Origin: an uncultured Aequorivita sp.
Lineage (GTDB): Bacteria; Bacteroidota; Bacteroidia; Flavobacteriales; Flavobacteriaceae
Length of the DNA: 64,000 nucleotides
Assembly: GCA_937125455.1 (NCBI GenBank)
Contig: CAKZLK010000061.1
Coordinates: 51,836 to 115,835, forward strand
Reading direction: 5' to 3'
Of the stretch, positions 33,250-42,196 are shown one piece after another. The notes beneath the pieces are model-generated. The model was not told where the DNA came from. It saw only the letters and a program-made list of their open reading frames with translations, and searched no databases. Each line of letters begins with the position of its first letter. The stretch's first letter is position 1. A program made the position numbers and the translations under genes.

Positions 33250-33510
33250 TTAATTCTTTGGAAAATCAAAATCAAATAAATCTCTGGGATGAACATCTAG
33301 CCCTTTAGCAAGCTCGAGAATAGTAGGTAATTGTATTTTTATAAGTCCTTTTTCAATTTTACTTATATCACTATAGTCCACATTACACCTTTGTGCTAGT
33401 TTTCTATAACTTAGATTTTTAGATTTCCTAAGTTTAGAAATTCTCTCACCAAAAGCTTTTAAAAATAATTCAGCTTCTTCCACTGCCATAAAACTTATGT
33501 TTGACGACAA
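33250..33510 (-). CDS. XRE-family HTH regulator
   Basis: ISKLRKSKNLSYRKLAQRCNVDYSDISKIEKGLIKIQLPTILELAKGLDV. Confidence 0.85.
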   Translation of the reverse strand: MSSNISFMAVEEAELFLKAFGERISKLRKSKNLSYRKLAQRCNVDYSDISKIEKGLIKIQLPTILELAKGLDVHPRDLFDFDFPKN

Positions 33511-33642
33511 TTTGAAAATTTCATTTCAAAATAATGTGGGCTTATTAGCCCACTATTAAAATATTATTCATATATTTGGTTCAGAATTATATATTTGCGA
33601 TACTTCTTAAAGTAAAATAGTAGAAGCATTCGCTTTGAATCT

Positions 33643-33775
33643 CGGACAGAAAACTGGTACTTTTTATACGACGAGAGGATAAGTGTAAATGCTCACGACC
33701 CGGGGCGTGGGCTTACTTATTGTCGTAGGGTATACCAGTACCTCTGTTCGGTAAGTTGAGTCTCCACGCCCTTTT
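33643..33775 (+). promoter_or_regulatory. structured RNA leader or ncRNA upstream of the sigma-factor gene, with alternative terminator-like hairpin
   Basis: Nested stems CGGACAG/CTGTTCG, CTGGTA/TACCAG, TACGAC/GTCGTA, ATAAGT/ACTTAT, GCTCACG/CGTGGGC; competing GGGCGTGG/CCACGCCC followed by TTTTTG. Confidence 0.55.
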
Positions 33776-33907
33776 TGTTTGTTAAAAACAGGCTGGATTC
33801 ACAGCTCTTTTCAAGGCCATCTTCTCTTAAACATTCGAAAGAGCTCGCTTTAGTTATAAACAATAATCAAGTTAATGTTGTTGCAACTATTCATTAAATG
33901 AGGTCTT

Positions 33908-34684
33908 ATGTCAGATGATACATTTATACAATTAAAGAAAGGCTGTCCCGCCGCCTTTGCGCACATACACGCAAAGTACAGCAGGAACATCTTCTGGGTG
34001 GGCAAGCGGCTTATTGAGAATGAGTTCGTTATAGAAACCTTGGTACAGGATGCTTTCTTAAAACTGTGGCTCCATAGGGACACGTTGGAATCACCCAAGC
34101 ACGTCTTCTTTTTTTTAAGGTTCGTGATGAAAAGGGAATGCATATCCTACTACACCCGCCCCAGAAACAAGTTTTCCAGAAACATCCATTCGCTCGAACG
34201 GTTCGAAAATTACCAGGATTATATGGCGGGCTATGACCCTGTTGCTGAGGCAGAAGATCTAAAAGCCCAAAATATGAACCAAGAGGAATTGGAACAAATC
34301 GAAAAAGTATTGCCTCTACTCGATACCGAAAGTCACCGTTTTATAGAACTCTGCTTAAAATATGGCTTTCAGTACAAGGCCATTGCAGAGGCGATGGGGA
34401 CGAGCATTAAAGAAACAAGCAACAAGATTAAAAAAGCCATTGGGGAAATCAGAAACATAATCCATCAATGTGAGAGCTTTGAAAAACCTACGGTCAAATT
34501 GAAAGTTGAGGGGGTCATCACCGATCAACAGGCAGAGGTGCTGAAACTTCGTTGTGAGGAGAAATATTCGTTTGCCGATATTGCCACGGCGCTCAACCTT
34601 TCACAAAAGGAAGTTCACAGTGAGTTTATGGTAGCCTATAAGCTATCCCGTGACGGATACCAACAGCAACCCCAATCTGCATAA
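33908..34684 (+). CDS. ECF-type RNA polymerase sigma factor associated with a Cas12f-like protein
   Basis: Sigma2 region AFAHIHAKYSRNIFWVGKRLIENEFVIETLVQDAFLKLWLHRD; sigma4 HRFIELCLKYGFQYKAIAEAMGTSIKETSNKI; extra C-terminal HTH-like region. Confidence 0.85.
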   Translation: MSDDTFIQLKKGCPAAFAHIHAKYSRNIFWVGKRLIENEFVIETLVQDAFLKLWLHRDTLESPKHVFFFLRFVMKRECISYYTRPRNKFSRNIHSLERFENYQDYMAGYDPVAEAEDLKAQNMNQEELEQIEKVLPLLDTESHRFIELCLKYGFQYKAIAEAMGTSIKETSNKIKKAIGEIRNIIHQCESFEKPTVKLKVEGVITDQQAEVLKLRCEEKYSFADIATALNLSQKEVHSEFMVAYKLSRDGYQQQPQSA

Positions 34685-34685
34685 T

Positions 34686-35783
34686 ATGGAAAAGGCCACA
34701 ATGAAACTGACACGAAAGATTCAGCTCTTGGTAGACCTCCCTTCCCAAGAAGAAAGGAAGGAGGCACTGGACACGCTATACCAATGGCAGAACAGGTGTT
34801 TTAGGGCGGCCAACCTCATCGTTACCCATCTGTATGTGCAGGAAATGATAAAGGAATTTCTTTACCTATCGGCAGGTGTACAATATAAACTGGCCGATGA
34901 AAAAAAAGATGAGGATGGAATCCTCCAACGTTCCCGAATTAATACTACCTATCGGGTGGTATCAGATCGTTTTAAGGGCGAGATCCCCACGAATATATTG
35001 TCCACCCTCAACAAGACCTTGATTACTTCCTTTAATAAAAACAGGCCTGAGTACTGGCGGGGCGAATGCTCCCTTAAGAACTTCAAAAGGGATATGGCGT
35101 TTCCGTTCAGCATGGAATTGGTAAGCGGACTACATTATGACGATGAGAAAAATGCCTTCTGCTTTAGTCTGTTCCAGATCCCCTTCCGCACCTATCTGGG
35201 GAAAGACTTTACGGACAAGAAAAAACTATTGGAACGTGTCGTAGCGGGAGAGACAAAGCTCTGTACCTCACATATCAAATTAAAGGATGGCAAGATTTTC
35301 TGGCTTCCGGTTTTCGAAATTGAAAAGGATGAACATCATCTTAGACCCGAAGTAATCGCCGAGGCTTCCCTTTCGTTGGAATATCCGATAATAGTAAAGA
35401 CAGGCAACAACAAGCTCACCATTGGCAGCAAGGAAGAATTTATGTACAGAAGGTTGGCGATACAGGCAGCCAGAAAACGGGCACAGGCTGGGGCGACCCA
35501 TTCCAGATCGGGTAAAGGAACCAATAGAAAATTAAAGGCCGTGCGCTCTTTCCATCAAAAGGAAAACAAATATATACGGCACCGTATCCATGTCTACAGC
35601 AAAAGACTCATAGACTTTTGTATCAAACATCAGGTGGGCACGTTGATATTGGTCAACCAGGAGGATAAGATCGGGATAGCCAAGGCAGAGAAATTTGTTC
35701 TACGGAACTGGAGCTATTATGATCTGATGGTCAAAATAAAATATAAGGCCGAAAAGGCAGGCATCGAGCTTTTGGTCGAATGA
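34686..35783 (+). CDS. nuclease-dead Cas12f/TnpB-like protein (dCas12f), truncated before the zinc ribbon and RuvC-III
   Basis: By-eye similarity to Un1Cas12f1: RKLKAVRSFHQKENKYIRHRIHVYSKRLIDFCIKHQVGTLILVNQE and LRNWSYYDLMVKIKYKAEKAGIELLVE; RuvC-I Asp and RuvC-II Glu replaced; start 2 bp after the sigma-factor stop. Confidence 0.85.
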   Translation: MEKATMKLTRKIQLLVDLPSQEERKEALDTLYQWQNRCFRAANLIVTHLYVQEMIKEFLYLSAGVQYKLADEKKDEDGILQRSRINTTYRVVSDRFKGEIPTNILSTLNKTLITSFNKNRPEYWRGECSLKNFKRDMAFPFSMELVSGLHYDDEKNAFCFSLFQIPFRTYLGKDFTDKKKLLERVVAGETKLCTSHIKLKDGKIFWLPVFEIEKDEHHLRPEVIAEASLSLEYPIIVKTGNNKLTIGSKEEFMYRRLAIQAARKRAQAGATHSRSGKGTNRKLKAVRSFHQKENKYIRHRIHVYSKRLIDFCIKHQVGTLILVNQEDKIGIAKAEKFVLRNWSYYDLMVKIKYKAEKAGIELLVE

Positions 35784-35893
35784 TAAACTGATTGCGAAAC
35801 GAGGGTGCTTGTACACCCGTAAGGTGAGGTCACTTTAGAACACTCACTAAATGTAAAGAGCATATACAACGCGTGGACTCTCTTATTTTAAAT
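35784..35893 (+). ncRNA. candidate guide RNA for the dCas12f-like protein; scaffold about 35784-35870, guide about 35871-35893
   Basis: Immediately downstream of the dCas12f gene; hairpins GGGTG-CTTGTA-CACCC and GTGAG...CTCAC; 3' scaffold end GCATATACAAC resembles the Cas12f repeat end (..ATGCAAC); then GCGTGGACTCTCTTATTTTA. Confidence 0.5.
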
Positions 35894-36420
35894 GAGGGCA
35901 AAATTTTTATCGAATTAAAAAAACTGTCGGGAATTATCGATCAATTTCCGAGTGGGCAAAATTGGCATCTTACTAAAAAATCCGTGAAAAATTTGCCTGT
36001 TAATAGGCTGTCCGAAGGTTTTTCACGAAAATTTACTAAAAAATAAATTTGCAATATTTTATAAAACCCTTTAAATAAAGAATTTGTAAAACTATAACAT
36101 CGCGCAGCGTGTTATCCTCTTGCTTTACAAATTTTTTCCGCTCCGCTCCAAAAAAAGTAAACAAAATCAAACTAAAACAAACATAAATTTATAGCCAAAC
36201 ATTTTATTTTTTTAATATCAATTACCTTTTAACTTTAGAGAATAATCAAAGAAAGGGAGTTTATTTTTAGATCAAACCCAAACGATTTACTTATTATATC
36301 TTGAGCGTTTTCCTTTCCTTTTTGATTTATAGCAGAATCTTACAGACAATAGGATTCGCTACCCTAAAAACAGACACCATCCCCATCCTATTCTCGATTT
36401 ACTTCCCATAGCGCCATCGC

Positions 36421-36789: not shown

Positions 36790-37782
36790 TTACCAATTTA
36801 ATTGGTGTATCCTTTCTTGCAAAATAGTAAGTCGTCTCAAAATATCATCCCAAGAAAGAGATTCACCCGCAAACATACTCTCTTGCATTAAATTATAGTC
36901 GGCAGCATACTTTTGGATAACTGAAGGAGGTGGTATCACTTGAATTGAACTTGGCTTATGCTTGGTATAATCTATTCCTTTTAAGGGCGAAAAAGCACTG
37001 CGATGTTCAGCTATATGGTAAAATAGATCTGCATCTTTAAAAGCTTTTTTTGCGTGGTCAGTGTCCATTAATCTTTCTAGATCATAGAGATGCCGACTTA
37101 AGCGTTCTACTCTAATACTATCTTTTTGCCATTCCTCGTGTAGCAGGAATATTTTTTCTAAAAAAGTTCGTTGCGGTTCCACAGTTCTTACAGCAAATGC
37201 TGGATTTGTAAAAGGCTCTTCATTAAATTCTCTGTCCACAACGGAATTTACAGGAACATCCTCGAAAGGCTCACGAAGAGATCTACAACTTACTTCCAAT
37301 AGTATTCTTGGTTTTAAATAATCGCTATGTTTTGTCAAGGGATCATACGTAATAAAAATCCTTAGAGGATCAGTATCAGAATCTTCAAATGGTTCCACAC
37401 CCATAGAGTTAATCGGGAGTTTTCTTTTTTTTACTGCTTCTGTTAAATCCGCAAGCAGTTCTGTGCTGATGAATTTGGCACTTTTCTTCCGAAGTTTCTG
37501 TATTTGTGTTCGGGACAATTTACCTTCCATATTAAAAAATGAACGGTCAATTGCCAAGTCTATATCTTCAGAAAAGCGATTTATTAAGTTATAACCTTTG
37601 CTTAAAGAAGTACCGCCCTTAAATACGAATGCTTCCGCATAGGGTAAAGAAAATACAATCCGAAGCATTTCTGTTACCCACCAATCCTTTTCTATTGCAT
37701 ATGCTGGGAGTCCTGCTCTTACACCAGTTTGGGTGAATATTCTCAATTTCTGTTCGTCGGCAAGGTCTATAAAATCACTCAT
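36790..37782 (-). CDS. abiEii: AbiEii/AbiGii-family nucleotidyltransferase toxin
   Basis: AFVFKGGTSLSKGYNLINRFSEDIDLAID; paired with upstream AbiEi-like gene. Confidence 0.88.
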   Translation of the reverse strand: MSDFIDLADEQKLRIFTQTGVRAGLPAYAIEKDWWVTEMLRIVFSLPYAEAFVFKGGTSLSKGYNLINRFSEDIDLAIDRSFFNMEGKLSRTQIQKLRKKSAKFISTELLADLTEAVKKRKLPINSMGVEPFEDSDTDPLRIFITYDPLTKHSDYLKPRILLEVSCRSLREPFEDVPVNSVVDREFNEEPFTNPAFAVRTVEPQRTFLEKIFLLHEEWQKDSIRVERLSRHLYDLERLMDTDHAKKAFKDADLFYHIAEHRSAFSPLKGIDYTKHKPSSIQVIPPPSVIQKYAADYNLMQESMFAGESLSWDDILRRLTILQERIHQLNW

Positions 37783-38401
37783 AATAATACATAAGTAGGT
37801 CCCCAAAAATATCTGCAATCCATGATGGAGCAAGTTTCATATCGTGATATATATTTTCAGTTTCTTCTTTTTTTAATTGTTCTTTAATCTTTAAAATATC
37901 GTTTTGAGACACTTTTTCTTTTCCAATTTCTTTTAGTGCCTGAATAGCAAGTCCACTTAACCGACCCTTGGCGGCTAAATTTTTTGGGCTGGTTTTTTTA
38001 AACTTTATTCTGCGTTTACCAATGATTAGGGTTCGTGGTGACCCATCAGTTAGAAAAACGGCATTTAATGGAATTTGTGTTGAAAGTCCGAGCAGGTTTA
38101 ACGCCTGTATTCCGGTAGGAATAATACGAGCGTTGTCGCGTAGCGCTATTTCTTCCGCGATAGTTTCTATGTCCGGATATATTACGCCTAATAATTCGTC
38201 TCTCTCGGGATATAGATATATCCCTCGCGCTAATCGTGCTAAAAAACCATCATTTGTCAGTCGCAATAATGATTTTTTTGTATTCTCTACGCCATATTTT
38301 CTTTCAAATTCAGATGGCAAAACTATTTTACCTTTTTTCCCGACTTGAATTTCATCTTTTATTTTGTCCTTTACAGATTTCACAACTTTAATTTGTCCCA
38401 A
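37775..38401 (-). CDS. AbiEi-like antitoxin / DUF6088 family protein
   Basis: Overlaps AbiEii start; LLRLTNDGFLARLARGIYLYP winged-HTH-like. Confidence 0.8.
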   Translation of the reverse strand: MGQIKVVKSVKDKIKDEIQVGKKGKIVLPSEFERKYGVENTKKSLLRLTNDGFLARLARGIYLYPERDELLGVIYPDIETIAEEIALRDNARIIPTGIQALNLLGLSTQIPLNAVFLTDGSPRTLIIGKRRIKFKKTSPKNLAAKGRLSGLAIQALKEIGKEKVSQNDILKIKEQLKKEETENIYHDMKLAPSWIADIFGDLLMYYYE

Positions 38402-38544: not shown

Positions 38545-39651
38545 ATGGAACTTGGAAAAAGAATAAAACACTTAAGGCAAAATGCAGGTCTATCCCAGCA
38601 GGAATTTGCCGATTACACAGGGTTTTCAGTTTCTTATATCCAAAAATTTGAAGAAGGAAAGCGAGAAATGAAAACCAATCATTTAATACGTTTTTCCAAG
38701 GTACTAAAGCTAAAGCCATTCGATATTATAAATACCGAAAGTACTAATTTAGAATATCTTAATACCGATAAGTCTGCATTTTCAATGACCAATATTGAGT
38801 ATCGTGAAAAACAAGATTCGTATAAAATTTTTGAAAATGAAATTATAGAAACCATTTCAAGTGATTTCTTCAATATTATAGAACTGGAAAATATAATGAA
38901 CGATAAAATCAAGTTCAAAAATCCAGTAGAGAATATTGTGATAAGTAAAGGCGCTGATGTTGAAGATGCAGTTAAGTTAATCCGTAAAAAATGGAAACTT
39001 GGTAATAACCCCATATACGATGTGATTCACCTTTTGGAAAACAAAGGGGTTAAAATCTTTGAGGTTGAAAAGCCGAATAGCTTTGTTGCATTTTCAGGTT
39101 GGGCAGGTGAAGTCCCTATCATTGTACTTAACGCAATAAACTCAGATGTAGCAAGAAGGCGTTTTACAACCCTACACGAACTGGCTCATTTAATTCTTGA
39201 TTTTGATATCGATGATCATAAAAAAATCGAACGCTTTTGTGATCATTTTGCAGGGGCGATGCTTCTCTTTGAAGATGTGCTTTATGATCACTTTAATAAT
39301 GAAAGAAATGGAATTACCCTTGAAGAACTAAAAAACATCAAAGCTGCATACGGAATATCCATTTTGGCAATCATAATTCGTGCTCTTACCCTCAAAATAA
39401 TTAATTGGGACACCTATCACTCGTGGAAGGAAAAGTATGACCAATGGCGAGAAAATGATGATACTTCATTAGGGGAGTATCACGGTGTTGAAAAGCCAAA
39501 ACGGTTTTTTAGCCTTTTGGCTAAAGGATTGAATATGGACAATCAAGAAGGCAAGTCCCTATTGTCGCCAGCAAAAGCGGCAGAATTGTCAAATATGACT
39601 ATAAAAGACATTAATGCCAGGTTTGGCGGAAAAAACTTTATGCGAAACTAA
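38545..39651 (+). CDS. XRE HTH plus ImmA/IrrE-family metallopeptidase
   Basis: LRQNAGLSQQEFADYTGFSVSYIQKFEEG; HExxH motif TTLHELAHLILDFD. Confidence 0.88.
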   Translation: MELGKRIKHLRQNAGLSQQEFADYTGFSVSYIQKFEEGKREMKTNHLIRFSKVLKLKPFDIINTESTNLEYLNTDKSAFSMTNIEYREKQDSYKIFENEIIETISSDFFNIIELENIMNDKIKFKNPVENIVISKGADVEDAVKLIRKKWKLGNNPIYDVIHLLENKGVKIFEVEKPNSFVAFSGWAGEVPIIVLNAINSDVARRRFTTLHELAHLILDFDIDDHKKIERFCDHFAGAMLLFEDVLYDHFNNERNGITLEELKNIKAAYGISILAIIIRALTLKIINWDTYHSWKEKYDQWRENDDTSLGEYHGVEKPKRFFSLLAKGLNMDNQEGKSLLSPAKAAELSNMTIKDINARFGGKNFMRN

Positions 39652-40511: not shown

Positions 40512-40664
40512 ATGAGATATTCATTTCAAAACGACAAGTTGAGTCTTTGCGAAAAAGACACTTGTCTGCATTTAAACGGGGATAACGCCAAAGTTATTTC
40601 CACACTTATTACTGTTATAACATTTGTAGCAGCTGTATCAGCTATTGCAAAGCTTATTAAGTAA
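40512..40664 (+). CDS. small single-TM protein (50 aa)
   Basis: MRYSFQNDKLSLCEKDTCLHLNGDNAKVISTLITVITFVAAVSAIAKLIK. Confidence 0.45.
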   Translation: MRYSFQNDKLSLCEKDTCLHLNGDNAKVISTLITVITFVAAVSAIAKLIK

Positions 40665-40713
40665 TCAACTAGGCTGGCTCGTTGGAATCAGCCTAGTTAA
40701 TAATTTATTTATT

Positions 40714-41208
40714 ATGGAAAAAGAAAGATTAGAATACACAGTTAATCGGCTAGACCACTATTACGATAGCGTTAATAATAAAACGACTGTTTACATAGCC
40801 ATTAATACATTTATAACAGGTGGTATTATTACGCTCTTAACTCAAATACAAGACCTTCTCGATAAAGAAAACTGGCTATTGATTTTTTTAGCGGCTATTA
40901 TTGCATTTGGAGTGTGTAGCCTCATACTGTTGGCATTAGCCAGTATGCCCTACTTTTCTAAAAAAACGGAAATAGAGTCCTTGTATTATTTTGCTAGTAT
41001 CGGACAAAAAAAATCTCAACATTTTTGTGAACTATCAAAAAATCAGGACAAGAAGGCTGATGTGAAAGACTTAAGAAATCAAGTTTATGTTCTTTCAAAA
41101 GGCTTAATATCAAAATTCAGAAAGCTTAAATGGGCTTGTATTCTTTTAATCATACAATTTGTGCTTTTAGCACCTGTAACATACATATTAATCAAAATAA
41201 CTTCCTAA
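40714..41208 (+). CDS. Pycsar transmembrane effector (PycTM-like)
   Basis: LDHYYDSVNNKTTVYIAINTFITGGIITLL, two further hydrophobic segments; precedes cyclase gene. Confidence 0.75.
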   Translation: MEKERLEYTVNRLDHYYDSVNNKTTVYIAINTFITGGIITLLTQIQDLLDKENWLLIFLAAIIAFGVCSLILLALASMPYFSKKTEIESLYYFASIGQKKSQHFCELSKNQDKKADVKDLRNQVYVLSKGLISKFRKLKWACILLIIQFVLLAPVTYILIKITS

Positions 41209-41209
41209 A

Positions 41210-42196
41210 ATGAACTTATTCGAAAATTACAAAAATGTCATCCGAAAAGCGGTTGAAAACGACCCTACTAGATCAAATAAAATTTACGGTCTAAGTGAAT
41301 CCATAGTGGATAGCAATCGTGAATATCTTAAATTGTTAAGAAATGAGCTTCCTGGTAAAGAACTATCACCCGAGATGAAAATGTTTGCAAAAGAAATGGG
41401 TGTACAACAAACATTTGATTACCAACCACTGGGAAGCCATCCTGATTTCGTTTACCTAAAAGGTACAAATTTGGTTGAAGAGCATTGGATAATATCTGGA
41501 TTTATAGACGTAAAGAAAAGCACTAAACTCTTTAATAACTTTACAAAGGGCACAGTAAGATTGATAACAGAAAGTATCATCCGAGCTTCAATTTTTGCAG
41601 TAAATCTCTGTGGCGGATATGTGCATCGAATACAAGGAGACGGCCTCATGGTTTATTTTGGTGGGAAAAATATCGAAAAACTTAAGGCCGTGGAGGATGC
41701 TTTAAAAGCCTTTTCTATGATATCATATTTCGTCAAAAATGACCTTAAAAGCTTTTTTGAGGAAAATGGAATTCAAGATATTCATACAAGAGCAGGGCTG
41801 GATTTGGGGCATTCAAAACAAGTAGATTGGTTTTATTCTGGCACGGGTGAATCAGGGGAGGTTACTACTTGTAGCCTACATACTAGCCTTGCCCCCAAAA
41901 TGCAAAGTAATGCTATAAACAGTGGGATTGTTGTAGGTCATAATATAACGACTCAACTAAGAAAAGATAAGTATTTTGAAAAACGAAGTAAAGAAATACA
42001 TGATTATGAGGACGGAAGAAAGTACTATCAATATAATTTTGACTGGGAACGCTATTTGGTTGATAACAATTTGGCCGTGCAGAACGATATGGGGGTTTTG
42101 ATTCTAACCATAAATACATCGCCAGATCCACATAGAAATAGCCGTGATTTGTATCCTATCGCTTCAAAAAGCAGGCCTTATTTCAATTATGATTGA
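41210..42196 (+). CDS. class III nucleotidyl cyclase, Pycsar cyclase-like (PycC)
   Basis: ISGFIDVKKSTKLFNNFTKGTVRLI...GGYVHRIQGDGLMVYFGG; adjacent PycTM-like gene. Confidence 0.8.
   Translation: MNLFENYKNVIRKAVENDPTRSNKIYGLSESIVDSNREYLKLLRNELPGKELSPEMKMFAKEMGVQQTFDYQPLGSHPDFVYLKGTNLVEEHWIISGFIDVKKSTKLFNNFTKGTVRLITESIIRASIFAVNLCGGYVHRIQGDGLMVYFGGKNIEKLKAVEDALKAFSMISYFVKNDLKSFFEENGIQDIHTRAGLDLGHSKQVDWFYSGTGESGEVTTCSLHTSLAPKMQSNAINSGIVVGHNITTQLRKDKYFEKRSKEIHDYEDGRKYYQYNFDWERYLVDNNLAVQNDMGVLILTINTSPDPHRNSRDLYPIASKSRPYFNYD

What the first reader, a model, noticed from the sequence alone, without database searches (positions are those of the whole stretch)
35784..35900. Candidate dCas12f guide RNA with spacer GCGTGGACTCTCTTATTTTA
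The ~87 nt after the dCas12f stop fold into hairpins (GGGTG/CACCC; GTGAG/CTCAC) and end in GCATATACAAC, resembling the 3' end of Cas12f repeats (...ATGCAAC). The following ~20 nt (from 35871) would be the guide. I could not find a perfect match elsewhere in the window. A partial 10/12 match of the first guide bases (GCGTGGACTCTC) to the complement of GAGTCTCCACGC at about 33757-33768, upstream of the sigma gene and preceded by G on the minus strand, is suggestive but weak.
Basis: inference. Interest (0 to 1): 0.75.

Follow-up and report, generated by a model that had tools for sequence, protein, structure and literature searches.

The report
Guide RNA aimed at leader switch
Just after a gene for a dead Cas12f protein lies a real guide RNA, whose conserved guide matches a regulatory RNA switch upstream of its own operon (and, in related bacteria, upstream of nutrient-receptor genes), so an RNA-guided transcription system appears to aim at, and bypass, a natural on/off terminator.

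Summary
The guide RNA is real. The 70-nt scaffold at 35801-35870 recurs after nearly every homologous dCas12f gene found, with three hairpins (97% paired, 0/500 shuffles) and the guide starting at 35871. It tracks dCas12f across 400 genomes. The protein has lost its RuvC residues, sits one nucleotide after an ECF sigma gene, and is 74% identical to the solved 'nuclease-deactivated Cas12f' 9n9c, so this is a member of the known dCas12f-sigma class.

Its minus-strand 33757-33768 site is the 3' arm of a terminator hairpin. The supported site is on the plus strand at 33705-33721 (5'-G, 14/17), inside a ~190-nt leader upstream of sigma. In all 18 first-guide loci of this guide class that carry such a leader, the best 5'-G site within 5 kb lies inside it (1-4 mismatches).

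The leader has no match in Rfam 15. It occurs across Bacteroidia, mostly without dCas12f, and supports two mutually exclusive folds. The guide copies its switch strand. In relatives the same guides match leaders upstream of SusC genes (0-2 mismatches in most). Likely effect (inferred): sigma-RNAP recruited there starts downstream of the terminator's 5' arm, so the transcript bypasses attenuation. In this genome only the operon's own site was found.

The parts
33590..33785 (+). structured leader upstream of the sigma gene (model core 33639-33770): antiterminator-like nested hairpin and competing terminator hairpin
   Evidence: nhmmer 192 bits, R2 142.5 bits; two mutually exclusive structures supported by covariation; no Rfam match (distant copies)
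33590..33597 (+). TATATTTG, matches the Bacteroidota -7 promoter box TAnnTTTG at the 5' edge of the leader
   Evidence: sequence; TAnnTTTG kept in most aligned copies; consensus of the box from general knowledge
33704..33704 (+). 5'-G target-adjacent base
   Evidence: sequence; the best 5'-G site lies in the leader in all 18 class loci with a cis leader
33705..33721 (+). best-supported cis target of the guide (GCGTGGGCTTACTTATT, 14/17), the switch strand of the leader
33703..33710 (+). 5' arm of terminator stem (GGGCGTGG)
   Evidence: sequence
33764..33776 (+).
   Evidence: sequence
33908..34684 (+). ECF-type sigma factor (258 aa)
   Evidence: Pfam Sigma70_r2/r4_2; PDB 9n9q chain C 'RpoE' E=3e-90
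34686..35783 (+). dCas12f, nuclease-dead (365 aa from ATG 34686)
   Evidence: PDB 9n9c, 74% identity; catalytic D->S, E->V, third site and zinc finger missing beyond the C-terminal end
35801..35870 (+). guide RNA scaffold, three hairpins
   Evidence: 87.8 bits, the only hit in the window; only hit in the genome
35871..35890 (+). guide GCGTGGACTCTCTTATTTTA; about the first 16-17 nt are conserved across genera
33250..33510 (-). divergent XRE-type HTH gene; HTH-like genes sit in this position in many leader loci
   Evidence: Pfam HTH_3

Best explanation
35801-35890 is the guide RNA of the adjacent dCas12f-sigma pair. Its guide base-pairs with the minus strand of the leader upstream of the sigma gene (protospacer 33705-33721 on +, 5'-G at 33704). 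Inferred action: dCas12f-guide RNA recruits sigma and RNA polymerase, and transcription starts downstream of the R-loop. Because the R-loop covers the 5' arm of the leader's terminator, such a transcript lacks that arm, cannot form the terminator, and reads into sigma-dCas12f-guide RNA: positive autoregulation. In relatives the same guide class would do this at paralogous leaders upstream of SusC-type receptor operons, so the guide reads the most conserved strand of a leader family. Shown here: guide RNA homology and structure, loss of catalytic residues, guide conservation, cis and trans matches with 5'-G, two competing leader folds. Inferred: binding, recruitment, start site, terminator bypass.
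For: Scaffold conserved and covarying; found in 22/400 family genomes, which include all 20 with dCas12f. Guide GCGTGG[GA]CTCTCTTATT conserved across genera. In 18/18 loci with this class as first guide and a cis leader, the best 5'-G site within about 5 kb is in the leader (1-4 mismatches; next best at least 5), and 0/200 guide shuffles match the leader as well in each; for 13 loci whose first guide differs: 0/13. Trans matches upstream of SusC with 0-2 mismatches in most relatives lacking a cis leader, two of them perfect. Another guide class, including that of the genome whose dCas12f is solved as 9n9c (100% identity), matches 5'-G sites about 225 nt downstream of the same leader and about 260 nt upstream of SusC, outside the structured RNA, which favours DNA targeting. 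Two competing folds: S1 covariation 0.261 and S2 0.192, 0/500 shuffles each.
Against: In this genome the cis match has three mismatches (positions 7, 10, 11), and no SusC-linked leader was found, so activity here is uncertain. Several relatives (L053, L058, L064, L066, L067) have no good match among the leaders examined. The start site and terminator bypass are not shown. Conservation between guide and leader could partly reflect the leader's own constraint.
Confidence: 0.75

Rival explanations
1. The guide acts on RNA: as a copy of the terminator's 5' arm it pairs in trans with the leader transcript and blocks the terminator, without DNA binding.
For: The guide equals the switch strand and can pair with both its partners, GATAAG/GCTCACG and CCACGCC.
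Against: The TTGTGGG guide class matches sites outside the structured leader; the 5'-G is kept at the Flavobacteriaceae sites; a nascent terminator hairpin should fold faster than an intermolecular duplex (general knowledge).
Confidence: 0.08
2. The cis match is a by-product: guides are selected only for SusC-linked leaders in trans, and sigma merely shares the leader. Here, where no such leader is found, the system is decaying or idle.
For: Two perfect matches are in trans (L189, L205); no trans leader in this genome.
Against: Cis sites match with 1-4 mismatches in 18 of 18 loci; sigma and dCas12f here have open frames.
Confidence: 0.2
3. The hairpins are an ordinary 3' UTR or terminator, not a guide RNA.
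For: The single-sequence fold is no better than shuffles.
Against: Scaffold conservation and covariation next to dCas12f across genera; variable guides at a fixed boundary; tandem scaffold copies with different guides.
Confidence: 0.02

Closest known systems
dCas12f-sigmaE RNA-guided transcription system of Flagellimonas (Allomuricauda) taeanensis (PDB 9n9c, 9n9m, 9n9o, 9n9q)
   Same: dCas12f 74% identical over the matched region; sigma matches 9n9q chain C RpoE; same gene order; same scaffold at L051; 5'-G sites
   Different: Different guide class: here the guide matches the switch strand inside the leader, including the operon's own, rather than a site downstream of it. The primary paper was not found in the library; its mechanism is cited from memory.
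TldR (TnpB-like nuclease-dead repressors)
   Same: Catalytically dead TnpB/Cas12-lineage protein using a guide RNA to regulate transcription (described in PMC13418256)
   Different: TldR acts as a repressor; this protein is closer to Cas12f and is coupled to an ECF sigma gene
Type V-F CRISPR-Cas12f
   Same: Homologous protein family (9nzo, 134 bits; PADLOC Cas12f)
   Different: Catalytic residues lost; scaffold matched once in the window and genome, so no array of this repeat
Transcription-attenuating leaders and riboswitches
   Same: Leader with competing hairpins and a terminator
   Different: No Rfam 15 family matches; ligand or signal unknown; copies sit upstream of diverse genes

Membership tests
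dCas12f-sigmaE RNA-guided transcription | Cas12f homologue with lost RuvC residues | tested here: met
   D->S, E->V, third site and zinc finger absent
dCas12f-sigmaE RNA-guided transcription | adjacent ECF sigma gene | tested here: met
dCas12f-sigmaE RNA-guided transcription | guide RNA encoded just downstream of dCas12f | tested here: met
dCas12f-sigmaE RNA-guided transcription | guide match with 5'-G upstream of a gene | tested here: met
   33705-33721, 14/17
dCas12f-sigmaE RNA-guided transcription | matches upstream of SusC/D operons | tested here: inconclusive
   met in relatives; not found in this genome
dCas12f-sigmaE RNA-guided transcription | RNA-guided recruitment of RNA polymerase | not testable with these tools
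   needs ChIP-seq, in vitro transcription
Type V-F CRISPR-Cas | active RuvC nuclease | tested here: not met
Type V-F CRISPR-Cas | CRISPR array | tested here: not met
   single scaffold copy in window and genome; other repeats not scanned for
TldR | TnpB-derived repressor | not tested
   best PDB matches are dCas12f and Cas12f, which points away; repression not tested
Rfam families (leader) | match at gathering score | tested here: not met
Transcription attenuator | mutually exclusive terminator and antiterminator-like structures | tested here: met
   helix of at least 7 pairs and T run in 31 of 33 distant copies
Transcription attenuator | signal-dependent termination | not testable with these tools
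   needs transcription assays

The most novel reading that the evidence does not exclude
An RNA-guided transcription system has captured, as its conserved guide, the switch strand of an undescribed Bacteroidota-wide two-state leader RNA, so that one guide can override attenuation at its own operon and at paralogous leaders of receptor operons.
Probability: 0.5. Interest if true: 0.85.

Novelty: new variant of a known kind. Interest (0 to 1): 0.68.

Why it matters
It gives a testable reason why a dCas12f guide is conserved across genera: it reads the strand of a leader that is constrained by two pairings. It links RNA-guided transcription to a leader RNA family that has no Rfam entry yet occurs across Bacteroidia upstream of receptor, restriction-modification and defence genes, and it predicts a circuit (self-activation plus receptor activation) that can be tested with short reporters.

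Tried and rejected
Own-genome sites with 3 or fewer mismatches to the first 17 guide nt: of seven besides the guide itself, only the cis site has a 5'-G. Single-sequence folding of the guide RNA: uninformative. Rfam for the leader, gathering and E-value modes: nothing. Literature: searches did not find the dCas12f-sigma paper or a description of the leader in the open library; the F. psychrophilum transcriptome paper reports structured 5' regions without Rfam hits, but the passages read do not identify this one (PMC9723704). Mapping the terminator structure onto the model-made alignment A6 was abandoned for its many insert columns and replaced by a direct helix search, whose helix lengths alone often do not beat shuffled tails; the recurrent GCGTGGG/CCCACGC stem and T run carry the argument there. 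Targets of the first guide of L071 (another class): only weak sites found, not pursued.

Full report
OBSERVATION. The window lies in a 3.73-Mb draft genome. At 33908-34684 is an ECF-type sigma gene and one nucleotide later, from ATG 34686 to 35783, a Cas12f-like gene. The protein matches PDB 9n9c 'Nuclease-deactivated Cas12f' (E = 9e-187; 74% identity) and the sigma matches chain C 'RpoE' of 9n9q. Against the Cas12f 9nzo, the catalytic Asp (GVDLG) is Ser (EASLS), the Glu is Val, and the chain stops before the zinc finger and third acidic residue (which residues are catalytic is general knowledge of the family). The ASLSL/ASLSI variant was read in 46 of the homologous loci scanned. 9n9c is 100% identical to the protein of L051, Allomuricauda (Flagellimonas) taeanensis.

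GUIDE RNA. Fifty-seven loci encoding relatives were fetched. Nearly all carry, shortly after the stop codon, GAGGGTGCTTGTACACCCGTAAGGTGAGGTC...ACACTCACTAAATGNNNNNGCATATACAAC, followed by a guide. Thirty-six scaffolds support three hairpins with 97.1% paired cells, against 28-57% when partners are slid. A covariance model hits the window once, 35801-35870, the genome once, and 22 of 400 family genomes; dCas12f hits 20 of 400, all of them among the 22. Several loci carry two to five scaffold copies with different guides.

GUIDE AND TARGET. In 25 aligned guides of the class, about 16-17 nt are conserved, GCGTGG[GA]CTCTCTTATT. In this genome the best 5'-G site is 33705-33721 on +, 14/17. Taken alone this match would be weak: the genome has seven places with three or fewer mismatches besides the guide itself, although only this one has a 5'-G. 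The comparative evidence carries it. Across loci whose first guide is of this class and that have a leader upstream of sigma, the best 5'-G site within about 5 kb is in the leader in 18 of 18 (1-4 mismatches); for loci whose first guide is of another class, 0 of 13. L057 and L065 of that second group carry a further scaffold copy with a guide of the GCG or GTG type. Class loci without a cis leader often have trans sites: two perfect matches in the genome of L044, and 1-2 mismatches upstream of SusC in those of L045, L048, L056, L070 and others, but L053, L058, L064, L066 and L067 have none among the leaders examined. The other main guide class, TTGTGGGATAYACG, matches 5'-G sites about 225 nt downstream of the leader and about 260 nt upstream of SusC. 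In the genome holding both L044 and L052, the two guides match the same two leader regions at two positions.

THE LEADER. The target lies in a ~190-nt element with a TAnnTTTG box at its 5' edge and a terminator at its 3' end. Forty-seven copies support a nested hairpin S1 (92.1% paired, covariation 0.261) and a terminator fold S2 (98.1%, 0.192), each above all 500 shuffles and above slid controls; S1 and S2 use the same strand, columns 72-89 of A3, which is the guide sequence. No Rfam 15 family matches. The model hits 69 of 400 family genomes and 62 of 346 class-level genomes, most without dCas12f. Of 30 family loci read, about half precede a SusC gene, ten precede sigma-dCas12f and the rest are other or cut off; in distant copies the next genes include DNA methylases, a RibD_C protein, a response regulator and ZorA. 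One SusC operon continues with SusD and an S9 peptidase.

MECHANISM (inferred). dCas12f-guide RNA at 33705 would recruit sigma and RNA polymerase. Since the R-loop covers the terminator's 5' arm (33703-33710), a transcript begun downstream lacks it, whatever the exact start, and should escape the terminator at 33764-33776. That is positive autoregulation here and coordinated SusC activation in relatives. In this genome no SusC-linked leader was found, so the own-operon site is the only supported target, and its three mismatches leave activity open.

WHAT IT IS. By every feature tested it is a member of the dCas12f-sigma class whose Flagellimonas representative is solved (9n9c and related entries). 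What is not covered by that filing is the guide class: conserved across genera and equal to the switch strand of a leader family that has no Rfam entry.

LIMITS. The primary paper on dCas12f-sigma transcription was not found in the library; statements on its mechanism rest on memory, and it may already describe some of these targets. No expression data were available. The leader's ligand or signal is unknown. Searches over more than 40 genomes used stricter filters that lose weak matches.

Noticed in passing
window 36790-38401 (-): AbiEii/AbiEi toxin-antitoxin type pair next to the dCas12f operon (PADLOC).
   Followed up: partly
window 40645-42196 (+): Pycsar-like pair: 2TM/PycTM effector and PycC cyclase.
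   Followed up: partly
window 38545-39651 (+): HTH protein matching RmrA models.
   Followed up: partly
L013, L015, L068, L071, L074: Tandem guide RNA scaffolds with different guides downstream of dCas12f, three to five per locus.
   Followed up: partly
L044 and L052 (one contig, Allomuricauda abyssi): Two dCas12f-sigma systems with different guides match the same two leader regions; the L044 guide also matches, with three mismatches, the leader of the L052 operon, suggesting cross-regulation.
   Followed up: partly
L225, L239, L241, L253: The leader precedes ZorA, DNA methylases and a RibD_C protein in other Bacteroidia.
   Followed up: partly
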